Assembly: GCA_947632715.1 (NCBI GenBank)
Contig: CANRQF010000008.1
Coordinates: 1 to 34,223, forward strand
Origin: an uncultured Bacilli bacterium
GTDB taxonomy: Bacteria; Bacillota_I; Bacilli_A; RF39; UBA660
DNA: 34,223 bases
Reading direction: 5' to 3'
Under the pieces are notes generated by a model that was given only the letters and a program-made list of their open reading frames with translations, had not been told where the DNA came from and did not search any database. Of the stretch, positions 1-34,159 are shown piece by piece. Positions within the stretch are counted from its first letter, which is position 1. Each line of letters opens with the position of its first letter. A program made the position numbers and the translations under genes.

Positions 1-576
1 CCACCATATATTCATGAATCACTAAAAGAACAAGATCGTTATCAAACTGTTTATGCTAAATACTTAGGTAGTGCAGCGGCCCCAACGGCAGGATTACATT
101 TTACGAAAGAATTATTAAAAGAACTCGAAGATATGGGTGTAATTATTTGTTATGTTACTTTACATGTTGGTTTAGGTACATTCAGACCAGTGGAAGTAGA
201 AAATATTAAAGAACATCATATGCATACAGAATATTATGAAATGAAAAAGGAAGTAGCAGATATTCTTAATTTAGCTAAGAAAGAAAATAGAAAAATATAT
301 GCTGTAGGAACAACTAGTACAAGAGTATTAGAAACCGTTATGAGTAAATATCATGAATTTAGAGAATGTACAGGTAATACAGATATCTTTATATATCCTG
401 GCTATGAATTTTTAGCCATTGATGGTTTAATTACTAATTTTCATTTACCAAAGAGTACTTTGTTAATGTTAGTTAGTGCTTTATCTAAAAGAGAATATAT
501 TTTAAATGCTTATGAAGTAGCTAAACAAAATAATTATCGCTTTTTCTCTTTTGGAGATGCAATGTTTATAAAATAG
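1..576 (+). CDS. queA: QueA, S-adenosylmethionine:tRNA ribosyltransferase-isomerase (C-terminal part, 5' end outside window)
   Basis: QueA transfers and isomerises the ribosyl group of S-adenosylmethionine onto preQ1-modified tRNA, giving epoxyqueuosine in tRNAs with GUN anticodons. The reading frame is open from base 1, so the gene continues upstream of the window and the Met near base 133 is internal. The visible 191 residues open with PPYI, then the family block [20 protein letters not shown] and HFT, later TTSTRVLE, and near the end [19 protein letters not shown], all hallmark QueA segments. In Firmicutes queA is normally followed directly by tgt; here three unknown genes separate them. 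Identification is near certain from the motifs. The stop is TAG, and a promoter-like extended -10 begins in the next base, so downstream genes probably have their own transcript. Confidence 0.97.
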
Positions 577-611: not shown

Positions 612-1334
612 ATGCCAAATGATTTTTATGATATTGATATGATGCAAACTCTTAACGATATTGCTGAAGAATTGGATAAGAAAAATGTAAGTAGAAAAGA
701 ATTATTAAAAGAACTTGAAGATGGAGTTTATAAATTACTTGATGGTGCAGAGGAAAAGGGCCGAAAACTTGCAAAGTGTTCGACATTTAATGTTAAAGTT
801 TTAGGAGAAATTATAGCTAAATTTCTTACTGATACTGAAAACAAAAAATTTTATTTTAAGCAAATAAAAATTGAATATAACCATGCATGCTATTATGATG
901 GATTTAATGGTTTTAATGAACAAGAGATACAATATTTTGCTGAAATTTCTCATACTCATAACGTACTATTTTATAATACAATCGCTTATGATAATATTAA
1001 CGAAAATAAAATTTATTCATTAAAAGAACTAAAAGAGTTAACCTGTTTTGAATATCATTCTTATCCTAGCGACATTATAGAAATTTATAACTGCTATATT
1101 CCTTTTGATGAGTATAAACTAAATTTAGACAAACATCCTAATTTTACATTGGAAAATAAAACAAATGCTATTGATTCAAGAATTAAAATTATAGAATTTG
1201 TTGATACTTTAATTAATTATCGAATATATCATAATTTAGAAAATATTACAAAAGAAGAATTAGCAAATTTTGAACAAGAATATGTCTTAAAATATAATAA
1301 AAAAGAAGATAATAGTCGTAAATTAACAAAATAA
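612..1334 (+). CDS. Hypothetical protein, first gene of the queA-tgt cassette
   Basis: This 240-residue protein is not recognised. The ATG follows AAAGAAAGGGAAATAAAT, a usable but not perfect ribosome-binding site. The sequence is hydrophilic and acidic with no signal peptide or membrane segment, so a cytoplasmic protein is likely. It has a probable helical N-terminus (residues 10-60, rich in E, K and L), a Tyr/Asn/His-rich middle with repeated aromatic residues, and a very Lys-rich tail. It lies in the same direction as two further unknown genes, with a 56-base gap before the next. It is not obviously homologous to those two, which resemble each other. No promoter is visible between it and the second gene, so the three are probably co-transcribed from the promoter just after queA. 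Confidence 0.8.
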   Translation: MPNDFYDIDMMQTLNDIAEELDKKNVSRKELLKELEDGVYKLLDGAEEKGRKLAKCSTFNVKVLGEIIAKFLTDTENKKFYFKQIKIEYNHACYYDGFNGFNEQEIQYFAEISHTHNVLFYNTIAYDNINENKIYSLKELKELTCFEYHSYPSDIIEIYNCYIPFDEYKLNLDKHPNFTLENKTNAIDSRIKIIEFVDTLINYRIYHNLENITKEELANFEQEYVLKYNKKEDNSRKLTK

Positions 1335-1390
1335 TAAATTCTAAATGATAATTTTTGCAACATTGAGTATAGAAAAGGAGAAAGTATATT

Positions 1391-2260
1391 ATGTTTTATA
1401 AAGAATACTATGAATGGAACAAAATTGAAGAAATATACAAAACTAGAAACTTTGGTAACATTCTTCAACTTGATAATTCTGATCTTGTATGGAATTTAGA
1501 TAAAGTTGTTGAAAATAAAGAATTGTTAGAAATCATGCAAAAGAGTGTAGAAATACTTGAACATGTTCCAAATGGAATAGCAATAATTCGTTTTTATATT
1601 CACAATGACCATATGCAAACTAGAAAAGAAATATTAGATTCTGCTTCTTCTAGTTCTGTAAGTGGGAGAAACCATTACACAAATGATTTAGTGTTTTTGT
1701 ATTTAAGTAATTTTGCCATTAATAATATAGAAGAATCTATATTAATGAAATATCCTGGCAATAATAAAAAAGAAAGAATGGAAAACTTTTTAAAAGATTA
1801 TGAGGAAAAAGCAATAAAAACTGCTAAAAGAAGACTTTATGAATTAGAATTATATGTAAAACGTTATGCTTTAGCTTTAGTTGAATATTTTTATGACGTA
1901 CAATATAATGATATTCGTAATGAAAATGTGGTTAATCGTAACATATTAGATAAATATAGCGAAATATATGATAAATTTGAAACTTATAAAAATTTACCAT
2001 TAGAAAAGATATATCGAATAATTGATTTATTACAACCATTTTCTGATAAATATAAATATGGTAAAAGGGAATTTTATGGAGCAAGATATAGTGAGTATGA
2101 TAATGTATTTGAACCTTTATTTGATGGACCATACGATTTCTTAAGTCCAAATATTAGAGTTTATAATTTGTTTAATGAAGATGATGAAATAGTCGATAGT
2201 TTACTCGCCTATGGAAGAGAAGATGCAAGAATATTAAGAAAATTAGGATATAAAAAATAA
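1391..2260 (+). CDS. Hypothetical protein, paralogue of the next gene
   Basis: This 289-residue protein is unrecognised. The start is firm: AAAAGGAGAAAGTATATT precedes the ATG. No membrane segment or signal is visible. It shares at least four colinear blocks with the protein at 2303-3205: an N-terminal block with a Leu/Val-Trp-Asn/Asp pair (NSDLVWNLDKVVENKELLEI against DIDILWDIEKITLQKEFNKV), a following block ending in IIRFYI against ILRYFI, a central Lys/Arg helix (KTAKRRLYELELYVKRYALA against EIAKRRLERIKQYTLDYISR), and a late block (LEKIYRIIDLLQPF against PKEMIRIINLFNPY). This supports an ancestral tandem duplication. Tyr and Asn are abundant. The function is unknown, and no catalytic motif stands out. 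Confidence 0.8.
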   Translation: MFYKEYYEWNKIEEIYKTRNFGNILQLDNSDLVWNLDKVVENKELLEIMQKSVEILEHVPNGIAIIRFYIHNDHMQTRKEILDSASSSSVSGRNHYTNDLVFLYLSNFAINNIEESILMKYPGNNKKERMENFLKDYEEKAIKTAKRRLYELELYVKRYALALVEYFYDVQYNDIRNENVVNRNILDKYSEIYDKFETYKNLPLEKIYRIIDLLQPFSDKYKYGKREFYGARYSEYDNVFEPLFDGPYDFLSPNIRVYNLFNEDDEIVDSLLAYGREDARILRKLGYKK

Positions 2261-2302
2261 AGCCTAGATATTACTCGATATTAAATAAAGGAGGATTAAT
2301 AT

Positions 2303-3205
2303 ATGTATATTGATGATATTGATATATTATGGGATATAGAAAAAATTACATTACAAAAAGAATTTAATAAAGTTATGCAAGAAACAGTTGATTTATTATT
2401 AAAAGTTGATGGTGGTATAGATATTTTAAGATATTTTATATATGAAGATATAAATAGAGCATGTGTAACTTGTTGGGAAGAACGTTGGGGTAAGAAATAT
2501 GGTGGCAACTACGGAAAATACCCAATAAATAGAAACTATTCGTTTAAATCTATGTATAACAAATATATAGAGATATATAATGATGTGAAAGAAAAAACTG
2601 ATACAAATTTAGAAGCGTATTTTATAGATAGCTTAGAAATAGCTAAAAGAAGATTAGAACGTATAAAGCAATATACACTTGATTACATTAGTAGATTATT
2701 ATCAGGCGTTATATATGAGAGTGATGCTATTAATCAATATTCAAATTATTTAGAACGTTATTTTAGTATTAATGGAATAGATTGGAAGAAAAATAAGGAA
2801 TTTGTTCATTCACAATATGATAAAATAATAGACCCAAATACTTATTATAATCTAAATCTAACTCCAAAAGAAATGATTAGAATTATTAATTTATTTAATC
2901 CCTATTATTCATATCAAACTTCATATACTCAAAATTTTATTTGGGATAATCGCATTAATTTAGAATATTTTAGTTATTTTGGAAAATATGATAGAGAAAC
3001 ATTGCGATTGCAAGACGACATAATTTTAACCTTTGGTAAATGGGATAGAGACTTATGGAATGAAAGAGGATATGATTATTTAATAGAAGTAGAGAATTTA
3101 TCTTATTGGAAGTATATAAACCAAGAAACTTTTAAAAAATGGTATGAATTTGTACCAACTAGAAAATTAGTTAATCCAAAAGAAAATAACTTTAGACAAT
3201 GGTAG
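2303..3205 (+). CDS. Hypothetical protein, paralogue of the previous gene
   Basis: This 300-residue unrecognised protein follows the previous gene by 42 bases and has a strong ribosome-binding site (AAAGGAGG ten bases before ATG). It is the diverged paralogue of the 1391-2260 product, with conserved blocks in the same order. It differs in an insertion near residues 50-90 carrying CVTCWEERWGKKYGGNYGKY and in a longer Trp/Tyr-rich C-terminus (several W residues from about 250 on). The two close Cys residues, CVTC, could be a metal or redox pair but are absent from the paralogue. No membrane segments are seen. Transcription should end at the strong hairpin that overlaps its stop codon, making it the last gene of the cassette. 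Confidence 0.8.
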   Translation: MYIDDIDILWDIEKITLQKEFNKVMQETVDLLLKVDGGIDILRYFIYEDINRACVTCWEERWGKKYGGNYGKYPINRNYSFKSMYNKYIEIYNDVKEKTDTNLEAYFIDSLEIAKRRLERIKQYTLDYISRLLSGVIYESDAINQYSNYLERYFSINGIDWKKNKEFVHSQYDKIIDPNTYYNLNLTPKEMIRIINLFNPYYSYQTSYTQNFIWDNRINLEYFSYFGKYDRETLRLQDDIILTFGKWDRDLWNERGYDYLIEVENLSYWKYINQETFKKWYEFVPTRKLVNPKENNFRQW

Positions 3206-3234
3206 ATAGAAGTTAATGGCTTCTATCTTTTTTT
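3205..3234 (+). terminator. Intrinsic terminator of the queA-tgt cassette
   Basis: A perfect 8-bp stem, GATAGAAG with CTTCTATC, has a 7-base loop and is followed by seven T residues. The stem begins at the last base of the cassette's final stop codon. It separates the cassette from tgt, which has its own promoter just downstream. Confidence 0.85.
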
Positions 3235-3278: not shown

Positions 3279-4711
<1,433 letters not shown>

Positions 4712-7645: not shown

Positions 7646-8174
7646 ATGTATTAAAAATTCATATTATATAGAGTAGAGTGGCTATTAATATTTTTATTAC
7701 CATATTTAGCTTATATAAAATTTTAACTCCCCTACTAATAAAATACAATTAAACTATAAGTAAATACATAAATATTTTATCACTTTTTATATTAATTATT
7801 TGTTGTTATTTTATTTAATATTTATTAAAAATAGAATATATATATCCTTATATAAAATATTAATATAGGATATATAATATATAACCTTATTAAATATATT
7901 AATTAGGATATTATTTATTCTTTTTTAATTATTAAATTCATGATTATTTTTGATTCATTATTAATTTATAGAATTAATTCATATTTAAGATCGAATTGAT
8001 AGATTGAATATAGAGCAATGGTTGACAATAATTTAAAAAATGCAAAATATTTTTTCTCGTTTTCTATTTTGCATAATGTATATTATGTTAACCAAGACTT
8101 CTGAAATAAAAAGTTAATAATATTTTGAGATAGTTTATTACTACTATTCATACAATTTATTAAGGTGATATTGT
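7646..8174. other. AT-rich non-coding stretch upstream of the ZIP transporter
   Basis: About 530 bases hold no convincing open reading frame on either strand. The left part is almost pure A and T. Between about 7836 and 7915 the motif AGGATAT and its complement ATATCCT alternate as interleaved inverted repeats. The right end (8019-8094) is a long imperfect inverted repeat described separately. A ribosome-binding site, TAAGGTGATATTGT, leads into the ZIP gene. No DnaA boxes, tRNA-like fold or known riboswitch was recognised. Confidence 0.6.
8019..8094. repeat. 76-bp imperfect inverted repeat upstream of the ZIP transporter
   Basis: The left arm starts TGGTTGACAATAAT and ends TGCAAAATA (8019-8049). 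The right arm starts TATTTTGCATAAT and ends TTATGTTAACCA (8065-8094). The outer 8 bases pair apart from one change, the inner 9 (8041-8049 with 8065-8073) pair perfectly, and the middle pairs partly. Inside the right arm a second small palindrome, CATAAT-GTAT-ATTATG, covers 8072-8087. The left arm contains TTGACA at 8022-8027, a possible -35 element with a weak -10 at 8045-8050. It could be an operator region, an RNA leader hairpin or a small miniature-element relic. Confidence 0.65.
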
Positions 8175-31738: not shown

Positions 31739-32592
31739 CTATCTAATGTTACTCCTTTAATTTTGCCACTGATTAAATCATTATATACTTTCATACTTAC
31801 TTTTTCATAATCTACTTCATTATTTTTGTATGCTCCTATTTTTCTAGCAATTACCTCATACATATATTCTACATCATTATTATCAATTCCATATAAATTT
31901 TTGGCTATATCTTTATAATTAGAATATAAAATATTTAAAATATGAATACATACTTCATCCATATTAAGTATTTCTTTTTTTATTCCTCCCGTTGCTGCGA
32001 TATTAAGAGCTTGTTCATAGTCATCAAGTTTAGGCCAAAGAATTCCTGGTGTATCCAAAAGTAATAAACCAACATCAGTTTTTAAATATTTTAGATCTTG
32101 AGTTACCCCTGGTTTATTTTCAACTTTTGCAATATTTTTACCAATTATACGATTAATTAAAGTACTTTTTCCAGTATTTGGAATACCTATAATTAAGCTT
32201 TTAATATCTTTCTCTTTTAATCCTTTACTTTTTCTCTTATCTTGAATTTCTTTAGTTAATTCTTTAGTTAAATCAATTATCTTTTTATAATCATTACTAT
32301 CTTTTAAATCTACAATTAAAACATGGTACCCTTCATTTTGATAATATTTAGCCCATTTATTTGTTTCATTTATATCACATAAATCTTTTTTAGTCATAAT
32401 TAATATTCTTTGTTTATTTTTTATTAATGTATCTATGTCTTGAATTTTACTTGATTTAGGAATTCTTGCATCAATTACTTCATAAACAATATCAATATTC
32501 TTTAATTCTTCCTCTATTTTTCTTCTAGTTTTTGCCATATGGCCTGGATACCAGTTGATTACGCTTTTATTAAGAACATTATTTTCATTCAA
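31729..32592 (-). CDS. rbgA: RbgA (YlqF), ribosome biogenesis GTPase
   Basis: RbgA is a circularly permuted GTPase needed for late 50S assembly. The protein (about 287 residues) shows NWYPGHMAKTRRKI near the N-terminus, then G4 TKKDL, G1 GIPNTGKSTLINR, and G3 DTPGILWPK, in the permuted order G4-G1-G3, followed by the C-terminal helical domain. Start choice is uncertain: TTG at 32592 has GGTGAT six bases upstream, the ribosome-binding form common in this window; a GTG at 32604 has no good site. Either way it overlaps the end of rhuM, so translation is probably coupled. Confidence 0.93.
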   Translation of the reverse strand: MNENNVLNKSVINWYPGHMAKTRRKIEEELKNIDIVYEVIDARIPKSSKIQDIDTLIKNKQRILIMTKKDLCDINETNKWAKYYQNEGYHVLIVDLKDSNDYKKIIDLTKELTKEIQDKRKSKGLKEKDIKSLIIGIPNTGKSTLINRIIGKNIAKVENKPGVTQDLKYLKTDVGLLLLDTPGILWPKLDDYEQALNIAATGGIKKEILNMDEVCIHILNILYSNYKDIAKNLYGIDNNDVEYMYEVIARKIGAYKNNEVDYEKVSMKVYNDLISGKIKGVTLDRWK

Positions 32593-33622
32593 TTTTATCA
32601 CCACTACTTTTACTTTCCTCTATTAACAAATCAAAATCTGATTTATATAATTTATCTTGTTTAATTCTATATTTTTCAAATTCTGTTAATGCTTTATCAC
32701 AAGCAATTTCATGTGATATTTTTCCAGCATCTTTTAAAATATCTCTATCATCTGAAAGTAAGAATTTATCTATTCTTGTCGCCCAATCTTCCATTGTCAT
32801 AGGTATATGTCTTCTTGCTCGATTTTCTGCAATTTCTAAAAATGCACTAACAATTCCTTCTAAATCTTTAATTTCTTCTTCAGATAAATAATTTTTAGCA
32901 ATAATAACATCTGATTCCATTATTTTTCCATTAGGTGAATTTTTCCATGATGTTAAGCCCATATGGTCTTTATCAGCATCTACTCTATCATATATTATTT
33001 CGGCAACAGTTTGGTTTGAAACAGCGTAATGCATTTTATTTTGAACTTTTTTAAAAAAATCTATAGAAAGAGGAGATTTAGAGTCATAATCAATACTTGT
33101 TGCATATATATCTGTTACTTTTTGATAAAATCTTCTTTCCGATAACCTTATTTCTCTTATTTCTTCAAGTAACTTTTCAAAATAATCTTTATCAATAAAA
33201 GAACCGTTTTTCATTCTTTCTTTATCTAATACATAACCTTGAATCGTAAAAGTCTTTAAAACACTAGTAGCCCATCTTCTAAATTGAGTAGCCTTAATTG
33301 AATTCACTCTGTATCCAACGGAAATTATTGCATCTAAATTATAAAATTCTGTTTGATATTTTTTCCCATCTTCAGCAGTATGTTCCAAAATGGAACATAC
33401 TGATTTTCTATCCAATTCATTTTCTTTAAAAATATTATTCAAATGTTTTGTAATAGCTGGTCTTTGAACATCAAATAATTCAGCCATTGCTTTTTGAGTC
33501 ATCCATAAAGTTTCATTTTCATATCTTACTTGAATACCTTTTTGAATACCTTTATCTTTTTCTTGTACTTTAAAAGTAATAAACTCTTCAGCACTACTTC
33601 TAATTATTAAATCTTTTGCCAA
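32585..33622 (-). CDS. RhuM-family protein
   Basis: RhuM (PF13310, virulence RhuM) proteins are widespread in genomic islands and of unsettled function. The 345-residue product has the family's N-terminal region with an HTH-like segment (LWMTQKAMAELFDVQRPAIT then KHLNNIFKENEL), the EFYNLDAIISVGYRVNSIKA block, QFRRWATSVLKTFTIQGYVL, and the C-terminal AEIIYDRVDADKDHMGLTSW. The full length matches the family. The start is TTG with AAAAGGAGATGATAAA before it. It overlaps rbgA, an odd place for an island-type gene. The coding region contains a perfect 27-base palindrome (33376-33402). A truncated second copy lies upstream. Confidence 0.88.
   Translation of the reverse strand: MAKDLIIRSSAEEFITFKVQEKDKGIQKGIQVRYENETLWMTQKAMAELFDVQRPAITKHLNNIFKENELDRKSVCSILEHTAEDGKKYQTEFYNLDAIISVGYRVNSIKATQFRRWATSVLKTFTIQGYVLDKERMKNGSFIDKDYFEKLLEEIREIRLSERRFYQKVTDIYATSIDYDSKSPLSIDFFKKVQNKMHYAVSNQTVAEIIYDRVDADKDHMGLTSWKNSPNGKIMESDVIIAKNYLSEEEIKDLEGIVSAFLEIAENRARRHIPMTMEDWATRIDKFLLSDDRDILKDAGKISHEIACDKALTEFEKYRIKQDKLYKSDFDLLIEESKSSGDKIE
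33376..33402. repeat. Perfect 12-bp inverted repeat inside rhuM
   Basis: CAGTATGTTCCA and TGGAACATACTG are exact complements separated by AAA. The repeat lies in frame inside the rhuM coding region, where it encodes SVCSILEHTA. It could form a stable mRNA hairpin or serve as a protein-binding palindrome. Confidence 0.85.
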
Positions 33623-33679
33623 TTTATCATCTCCTTTTCATATGTTCTTAAACAATCTTCTACATTTTACTTGTATAAG

Positions 33680-33693
33680 AAGAATTAATTCTT
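33680..33693. repeat. 14-bp palindrome between the two rhuM-type genes
   Basis: AAGAATTAATTCTT is a perfect palindrome in the 72-base gap between the truncated and the intact rhuM. It may be an operator for the intact gene, since RhuM has an HTH-like segment. No T-run follows, so it is not a clear terminator. Confidence 0.4.
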
Positions 33694-33694
33694 A

Positions 33695-34159
33695 CTAATT
33701 TCTATTTTCATCTTTAACTTCTAATAATTCTACTTCTTTTATAAATTTATCAAAATCTGATATATATAGCTTATCCTGTTTTAATCTATATTTATCATAT
33801 TCTTTATAGGCTAACTCTTGTGCAACTTTTTGAGATATCTTACCAGCATTTTTTAATATCTCTTTTCCATTAAATTGTAAAAAAGCATTTAATCTATTTA
33901 TCCAATCATTCATAGTCATTGCATTATGATTTTCTGCTTGATATTCAGCATAATCTAAATACATTGTAACAATTCTATTTAAATTTTTTAGTTCTTTTTC
34001 ATTTAAATAGTTTTTGGCTACATCAACATCGTATCTATAAATTGGACCATTTGGTGACTCTTTCCAATTAGTTAAACCCATATTTTCTTTTTCTGAATCT
34101 ACTCTATTATAAATTATTTCTGCTGCTGTATAACCGATAACTGCTCTCAAATGACACAT
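33695..34159 (-). pseudogene. Truncated RhuM-family gene (C-terminal half)
   Basis: These 154 residues align with the C-terminal half of the intact RhuM product next to it: TAAEIIYNRVDSEKENMGLT against TVAEIIYDRVDADKDHMGLT, SPNGPIYRYDVDVAKNYLNE against SPNGKIMESDVIIAKNYLSE, MTMNDWINRLNAFL against MTMEDWATRIDKFL, and KQDKLYISDFDKFI against KQDKLYKSDFDLLI. The N-terminal HTH-like half is missing. Upstream in the same frame there is a stop six codons before the ATG, and no good ribosome-binding site precedes the ATG. Divergence between the copies shows they are old paralogues rather than a recent duplication. Expression as a short protein cannot be excluded. Confidence 0.75.

What the first reader, a model, noticed from the sequence alone, without database searches (positions are those of the whole stretch)
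612..3234. Three-gene unknown cassette with an internal paralogue pair inserted between queA and tgt
Seen: queA and tgt, normally adjacent, are separated by three unrecognised genes in the same direction, with their own extended -10 promoter and a strong terminator. Genes two and three share at least four colinear sequence blocks, so one is a diverged tandem duplicate. Inference: a self-contained accessory cassette, possibly with interacting paralogues. The sequence gives no function, and no catalytic motif is visible.
Basis: partly seen in the sequence, partly recalled or inferred. Interest (0 to 1): 0.6.

Follow-up and report, generated by a model that had tools for sequence, protein, structure and literature searches.

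The report
Recombining tandem-array accessory gene cassette
Between two housekeeping genes of a small-genome gut bacterium lies a variable spot holding fast-changing genes of an undescribed protein family that is copied in tandem and reshuffled by recombination, a pattern best known from genes that protect bacteria against rivals' toxins, although the function here is unproven.

Summary
Three co-directional ORFs (g1 612-1334, g2 1391-2260, g3 2303-3205) lie between queA and tgt and end in a terminator. g2 and g3 are true diverged paralogues (13 SD above shuffles). None matches Pfam, NCBIfam, PHROGs, PADLOC or PDB sequences.

The "inserted between normally adjacent genes" reading needs correcting. 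In 20 of 27 scorable genus-mates queA-tgt already carries an unrelated opposite-strand ~150-aa gene; in 7 the genes touch. Only one four-species clade carries g1, and g2+g3 occur in just two of its members.

g1, not the g2/g3 pair, is the main novelty. It belongs to a sparse family found only in the window's own taxonomic family (42 of 385 genomes). At queA-tgt it forms tandem arrays of 1, 4, 2 and 1 copies with a conserved 3' end and a variable centre. Recombination between copies is significant, and silent divergence of g1 between species is about five times lower than in queA/tgt, so alleles have moved recently. A second array on C23 shows the same pattern.

The closest analogue is the recombining esaG/tipC type VII immunity arrays. 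My best guess is an orphan immunity-type array (confidence 0.38). The function is inferred; anti-phage defence is the main rival.

The parts
1..576 (+). queA, 3' part (left flank)
   Evidence: ORF listing and synteny with full-length queA in L019/L020/L021
577..585 (+). TGCTATAAT, candidate extended -10 element of the cassette
   Evidence: sequence; conserved in four sister species; not supported by the scan with a -35 box
612..1334 (+). g1: 240 aa, undescribed family; N-terminal helical/coiled part, conserved S-T-F-(D/N)...G motif, variable centre, conserved C-terminal helices
   Evidence: family built from 20 members; 42 of 385 genomes; tandem copies in sister species
1391..2260 (+). g2: 289 aa, paralogue of g3
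   Evidence: present only in G000 and G006
2303..3205 (+). g3: 300 aa, paralogue of g2
   Evidence: present only in G000 and G006
3204..3234 (+). intrinsic terminator (11-bp stem, T run)
   Evidence: 1 found, 0.2 expected; also seen after g3 in G006
3279..3287 (+). TGCTATAAT, candidate extended -10 of tgt
   Evidence: same element before tgt in relatives whose junction is occupied, absent where queA and tgt touch
3308..4435 (+). tgt (right flank)

Best explanation
The queA-tgt junction is a variable spot that, in one four-species clade, holds a birth-and-death array of g1 genes; in two of the four species a tandem g2/g3 pair follows. Shown: g1 copies are duplicated and lost, recombine through their conserved 3' ends (less clearly their 5' ends), keep a divergent centre, and have been exchanged between species recently. 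Inferred: this is a specificity repertoire in a molecular conflict. Most likely g1 proteins are small cytoplasmic immunity-type proteins whose conserved ends form the scaffold and whose variable centre binds a partner, such as a toxin delivered by a neighbouring gut bacterium. They would be orphan here, because no toxin or T7SS is encoded alongside. g2/g3 are read as a second, fast-evolving paralogue pair serving the same kind of task.
For: Copy number at the same site is 1, 4, 2 and 1 in four sister species. Paralogous copies are 56-78% identical in nucleotides in the centre but about 88-100% in the last ~34 codons; G017 copy 2 is 99-100% like the window's g1 in the middle but 100% like its own neighbour copy at the 3' end. 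MaxChi breakpoint at codon 232: left 119 of 124 sites match one parent, right 0 of 15, 0 of 2000 permutations as extreme; four more triplets show breakpoints, three of the five near codons 232-233. A second array in the same genomes (C23) repeats this: centre 44-65% between unlike copies, 3' ends 88-95%. g1 silent divergence between G000 and G017 is 0.078 against 0.35 (queA) and 0.395 (tgt), Fisher p 1.6e-7. g2/g3 between G000 and G006: dN/dS about 0.8, silent changes about 5-fold rarer than in queA/tgt (p 1e-10). Proteins are acidic (pI 5.1-5.4), hydrophilic and Cys-poor. The same design, conserved end blocks with recombination between tandem paralogues and copy-number change, is reported for the T7SS immunity genes esaG and tipC (PMC9484751). 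T7SSb EssC is common in the family (41 of 80 genomes over cut-off), so T7SS-bearing relatives exist that could attack these cells.
Against: No toxin partner, no LXG protein over cut-off in any of the 80 genomes and no EssC over cut-off in the four species carrying the array. EssC is not significantly commoner in g1-positive genomes (26 of 43 against 15 of 37, p 0.12). Only one g1 copy lies beside a WXG100 cluster (L103), while near relatives of it sit elsewhere. No similarity to any immunity family in Pfam, NCBIfam or PADLOC. The structure model is of low to middling confidence (pLDDT 59.8) and matches no known fold. Recombining tandem arrays also occur in other gene classes, such as staphylococcal lpl lipoproteins (PMC9484751).
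Confidence: 0.38

Rival explanations
1. An anti-phage defence locus: g1 (and g2/g3) sense or block phage factors, the variable centre tracking phage variants, and the cassettes exchange between strains as defence genes do.
For: Patchy, variable spot, recent exchange between species and elevated dN/dS in g2/g3. Some relatives of g1 lie right after tRNA genes, and one tandem pair follows a gene with a weak AbiEi-like N-terminus.
Against: No PADLOC match for any of the three proteins or for 20 family members above chance level; no nuclease, NTPase or membrane effector motif seen in Pfam scans; neighbours of the dispersed copies are mostly housekeeping or unknown genes; tandem homogeneous arrays are not typical of known defence effectors (own knowledge).
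Confidence: 0.25
2. A lineage-specific paralogous family with an ordinary cellular role (for example an adaptor or scaffold protein with a coiled-coil N-terminus) that duplicates and recombines simply because tandem copies do so; no conflict is involved.
For: No partner, no toxin, no catalytic motif; g1 itself is under purifying selection (dN/dS about 0.28-0.41). Tandem arrays recombine in other gene families too (PMC9484751).
Against: Presence is patchy (42 of 385 genomes), at unrelated loci, with silent divergence much lower than the flanking genes, which an ordinary vertically inherited gene would not show.
Confidence: 0.25
3. A toxin-antitoxin type module, with g1 as antitoxin and g2/g3 as toxins, or the reverse.
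For: Same-direction genes under a common terminator; acidic proteins; accessory distribution.
Against: g1 occurs alone, in arrays and without g2/g3 in most places; three genes of 240-300 aa without any known TA domain.
Confidence: 0.08

Closest known systems
EsaG (Staphylococcus aureus) and TipC (streptococcal) T7SS immunity gene arrays (PMC9484751)
   Same: Non-identical tandem paralogues of one family; conserved nucleotide blocks at the ends (5' and 3' blocks in tipC; three blocks in esaG) with variable parts between; recombination through the conserved blocks; copy number differs between close relatives; can be orphan
   Different: No sequence relation found; no T7SS or toxin gene in the carrier genomes; immunity function not shown; lies between queA and tgt
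Orphan (acquired) immunity gene islands of gut bacteria (cited in PMC9484751)
   Same: Immunity-like repertoire without the cognate effector, in gut bacteria, exchanged between species
   Different: Those islands carry many unrelated immunity families, whereas here one family is repeated; no known immunity domain; no toxin match
S. aureus tandem lipoprotein (lpl) arrays (as described in PMC9484751)
   Same: Copy-number change by recombination between tandem paralogues through a shared block
   Different: Lipoproteins on a genomic island with a central conserved block; here hydrophilic proteins, a variable centre and conserved ends

Membership tests
T7SS immunity arrays (EsaG/TipC type) | Tandem non-identical paralogues with copy-number variation between close relatives | tested here: met
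   1, 4, 2 and 1 copies at queA-tgt and 2, 3 and 1 at the C23 locus among sister species
T7SS immunity arrays (EsaG/TipC type) | Conserved blocks at gene ends and recombination between paralogues through them | tested here: met
   identity profile and MaxChi permutation tests
T7SS immunity arrays (EsaG/TipC type) | Sequence or fold membership in a known immunity family | tested here: inconclusive
   no hit in Pfam, NCBIfam or PADLOC; fold search of a pLDDT 59.8 model found nothing
T7SS immunity arrays (EsaG/TipC type) | Linked T7SS or polymorphic toxin gene in the genome (not required for orphan arrays) | tested here: not met
   no EssC over cut-off and no LXG in G000, G006, G017, G004; genomes are 82-92% complete drafts
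T7SS immunity arrays (EsaG/TipC type) | Neutralises a toxin by binding it | not testable with these tools
   needs an experiment
Known anti-phage defence systems | Match to a described defence protein | tested here: not met
   PADLOC-DB 2.0 scans of the three proteins and of 20 g1 relatives
Phage- or plasmid-borne cargo | Homologues on phage, plasmid or viral records | tested here: not met
   no match in phages, plasmids or viral contigs

The most novel reading that the evidence does not exclude
g1 defines a new family of conflict (immunity or defence) proteins confined to one family of small-genome gut Bacilli, maintained as recombining tandem repertoires at several chromosomal spots, with alleles trading between species; g2/g3 would be a second new family tied to it.
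Probability: 0.5. Interest if true: 0.6.

Novelty: new variant of a known kind. Interest (0 to 1): 0.42.

Why it matters
These bacteria are uncultured, with genomes near 1.2 Mb, and little is known of how they survive attack in the gut. A protein family that no profile library holds, yet which is repeatedly duplicated, reshuffled and exchanged between species, is a sensible place to look for their immunity or defence genes. The conserved-ends, variable-centre design says which part to test for specificity.

Tried and rejected
Family scans of the three proteins and of 20 g1 relatives against Pfam, NCBIfam, PHROGs and PADLOC gave only sub-threshold, mutually inconsistent hits. PDB sequence searches: nothing credible for g2 alone or for profiles of g1 and g2/g3. 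AlphaFold: g1 pLDDT 59.8; g2 44.9, all-helical and unusable. Foldseek PDB and BFVD and the VIA second look for g1 gave no credible match; the SMC-head and PBP rows (Z 2.0-2.4) are at noise level. Profile comparison of g2/g3 with g1, and of both with the alternative occupant gene, found no relation. Viral, phage and plasmid collections were all negative. A T7SS link was tested and not supported as a statistical association. Conserved flanks show that some distant g1 copies move next to tRNA genes, but the window's cassette shares no such flanks, so that route was not extended to it.

Full report
Observation. The window opens inside queA and continues with three co-directional ORFs and tgt. g2 and g3 are paralogues beyond doubt (BLASTP E 7e-7; 13 SD above shuffles); g1 is unrelated to them. 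A strong terminator follows g3. An extended -10 sequence lies directly after the queA stop and is kept in the sister species, but no -35 supports it. GC and GC3 of the three genes resemble the rest of the window, so composition gives no sign of foreign origin.

Where it occurs. In 38 genomes of the genus, g1 is found in four (G000, G006, G017, G004), always at queA-tgt. g2 and g3 occur only in G000 and its nearest sister G006 and in none of 372 genomes sampled from the family apart from the window's own. Among 27 other genus members whose junction could be read, queA and tgt touch in 7 and are parted by an unrelated opposite-strand gene of about 150 aa in 20; the four g1 species form one clade on the tgt tree. 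So the junction is a variable spot whose occupant changed, not a single insertion into an otherwise intact pair. Relatives with the other occupant also carry a tgt promoter-like TGNTATAAT, which is lacking where the genes touch.

g1 is a family. A profile from the close copies plus three distant ones found members in 42 of 385 genomes drawn from the order, every hit lying in the window's own taxonomic family; a class-wide draw found it in 7 of 296, again only in that family. Members share an N-terminal helical part, a Y-S-T-F-(D/N)...G motif, a divergent middle and a C-terminal F-(I/V)-(D/N)...(I/V)-x-Y-(R/K) helix region. They sit at unrelated loci, sometimes in tandem: two and three copies next to a sortase gene on C23 and its counterpart in G017, and a pair in G072. 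Two are fused to a ~200-aa C-terminal extension (L095, L104). One sub-lineage (L099-L103) is carried with about 90-250 bp of shared upstream sequence, and three of those insertions begin right at tRNA 3' ends.

How it evolves. At queA-tgt the four species hold 1, 4, 2 and 1 g1 copies. The copies are alike at the 3' end (about 88-100%) and very different in the centre (56-78% between unlike copies). In G017 the second copy is 99-100% identical to the window's g1 in the middle but 100% identical to its own neighbour at the 3' end; the breakpoint is at alignment codon 232 (119 of 124 sites against 0 of 15; 0 of 2000 permutations). The C23 array shows the same pattern. The window's g1 allele has silent divergence of 0.078 from G017, against 0.35-0.68 in queA, tgt and two further conserved genes, p 1.6e-7 against queA+tgt. 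Such low silent divergence is best read as recent exchange of the allele between species. g2/g3 show few silent but many amino-acid changes between G000 and G006 (13 silent against 46 replacement codons; queA+tgt 69 against 7), dN/dS about 0.8. That is weak constraint or diversifying selection; with one pair of genomes the two cannot be told apart.

What it most likely does. Shown: an accessory, recombining, horizontally exchanged repertoire of an undescribed protein. Inferred: conflict. The closest documented parallel is the T7SS immunity arrays esaG and tipC, where end blocks recombine and the variable parts are thought to set toxin specificity (PMC9484751). g1 meets the architectural features of that class but fails or cannot be tested on the functional ones: no known immunity fold, no toxin partner, and no EssC over cut-off in the carriers. 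It works like such an array in its evolution; membership is not claimed. If g1 is an immunity protein, it is an orphan in these genomes. Anti-phage defence is the main rival, and an ordinary lineage-specific family the null.

Limits. All genomes are draft MAGs, one per species; array copy number in MAGs can be miscounted, though the queA and tgt flanks on the same contigs argue against contamination. The host lineage is 'uncultured Bacilli' by record title for the rabbit-gut sister genomes; any closer placement would be my inference. The g1 model (pLDDT 59.8) is too weak to exclude a known fold.

Noticed in passing
queA-tgt junction of 20 genus-mates, e.g. L029, L031, L035, L047: An unrelated opposite-strand gene of about 150 aa, without a Pfam match above cut-off, occupies the same junction in most of the genus and is missing in others; it is highly diverged between species.
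   Followed up: partly
L100, L102, L103 (upstream of the g1 homologue): g1 homologues of one sub-lineage start immediately after tRNA 3' ends, with a shared hairpin-like sequence (AACTCGGACT...AGTTCGAGTT) and shared downstream sequence, as if moved as a unit.
   Followed up: partly
L062 2236-4970: A gene with a weak AbiEi-like N-terminus is followed by two tandem g1 homologues in the same direction.
   Followed up: no
L095 246-1745, L104 3754-5214: g1 domain fused to a ~200-aa C-terminal part of unknown kind; in L104, and with an unfused g1 in L098, it stands divergently beside an orthologous LysR gene.
   Followed up: no
G165:C9 (L103 400-2351): A g1 homologue lies about 3 kb from a cluster of WXG100-like genes and a YukD-like gene, with EssC on the same contig; EssC is common in this family (41 of 80 genomes) although no LXG domain passes its cut-off.
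   Followed up: partly
window about 7810-7940: A roughly 125-bp stretch matches several places on both strands in the sister genomes at 70-79% identity, possibly a dispersed repeat.
   Followed up: no
window 32585-34159: A RhuM-like gene is followed upstream by a shorter ORF repeating its C-terminal part, apparently a partial duplication.
   Followed up: no
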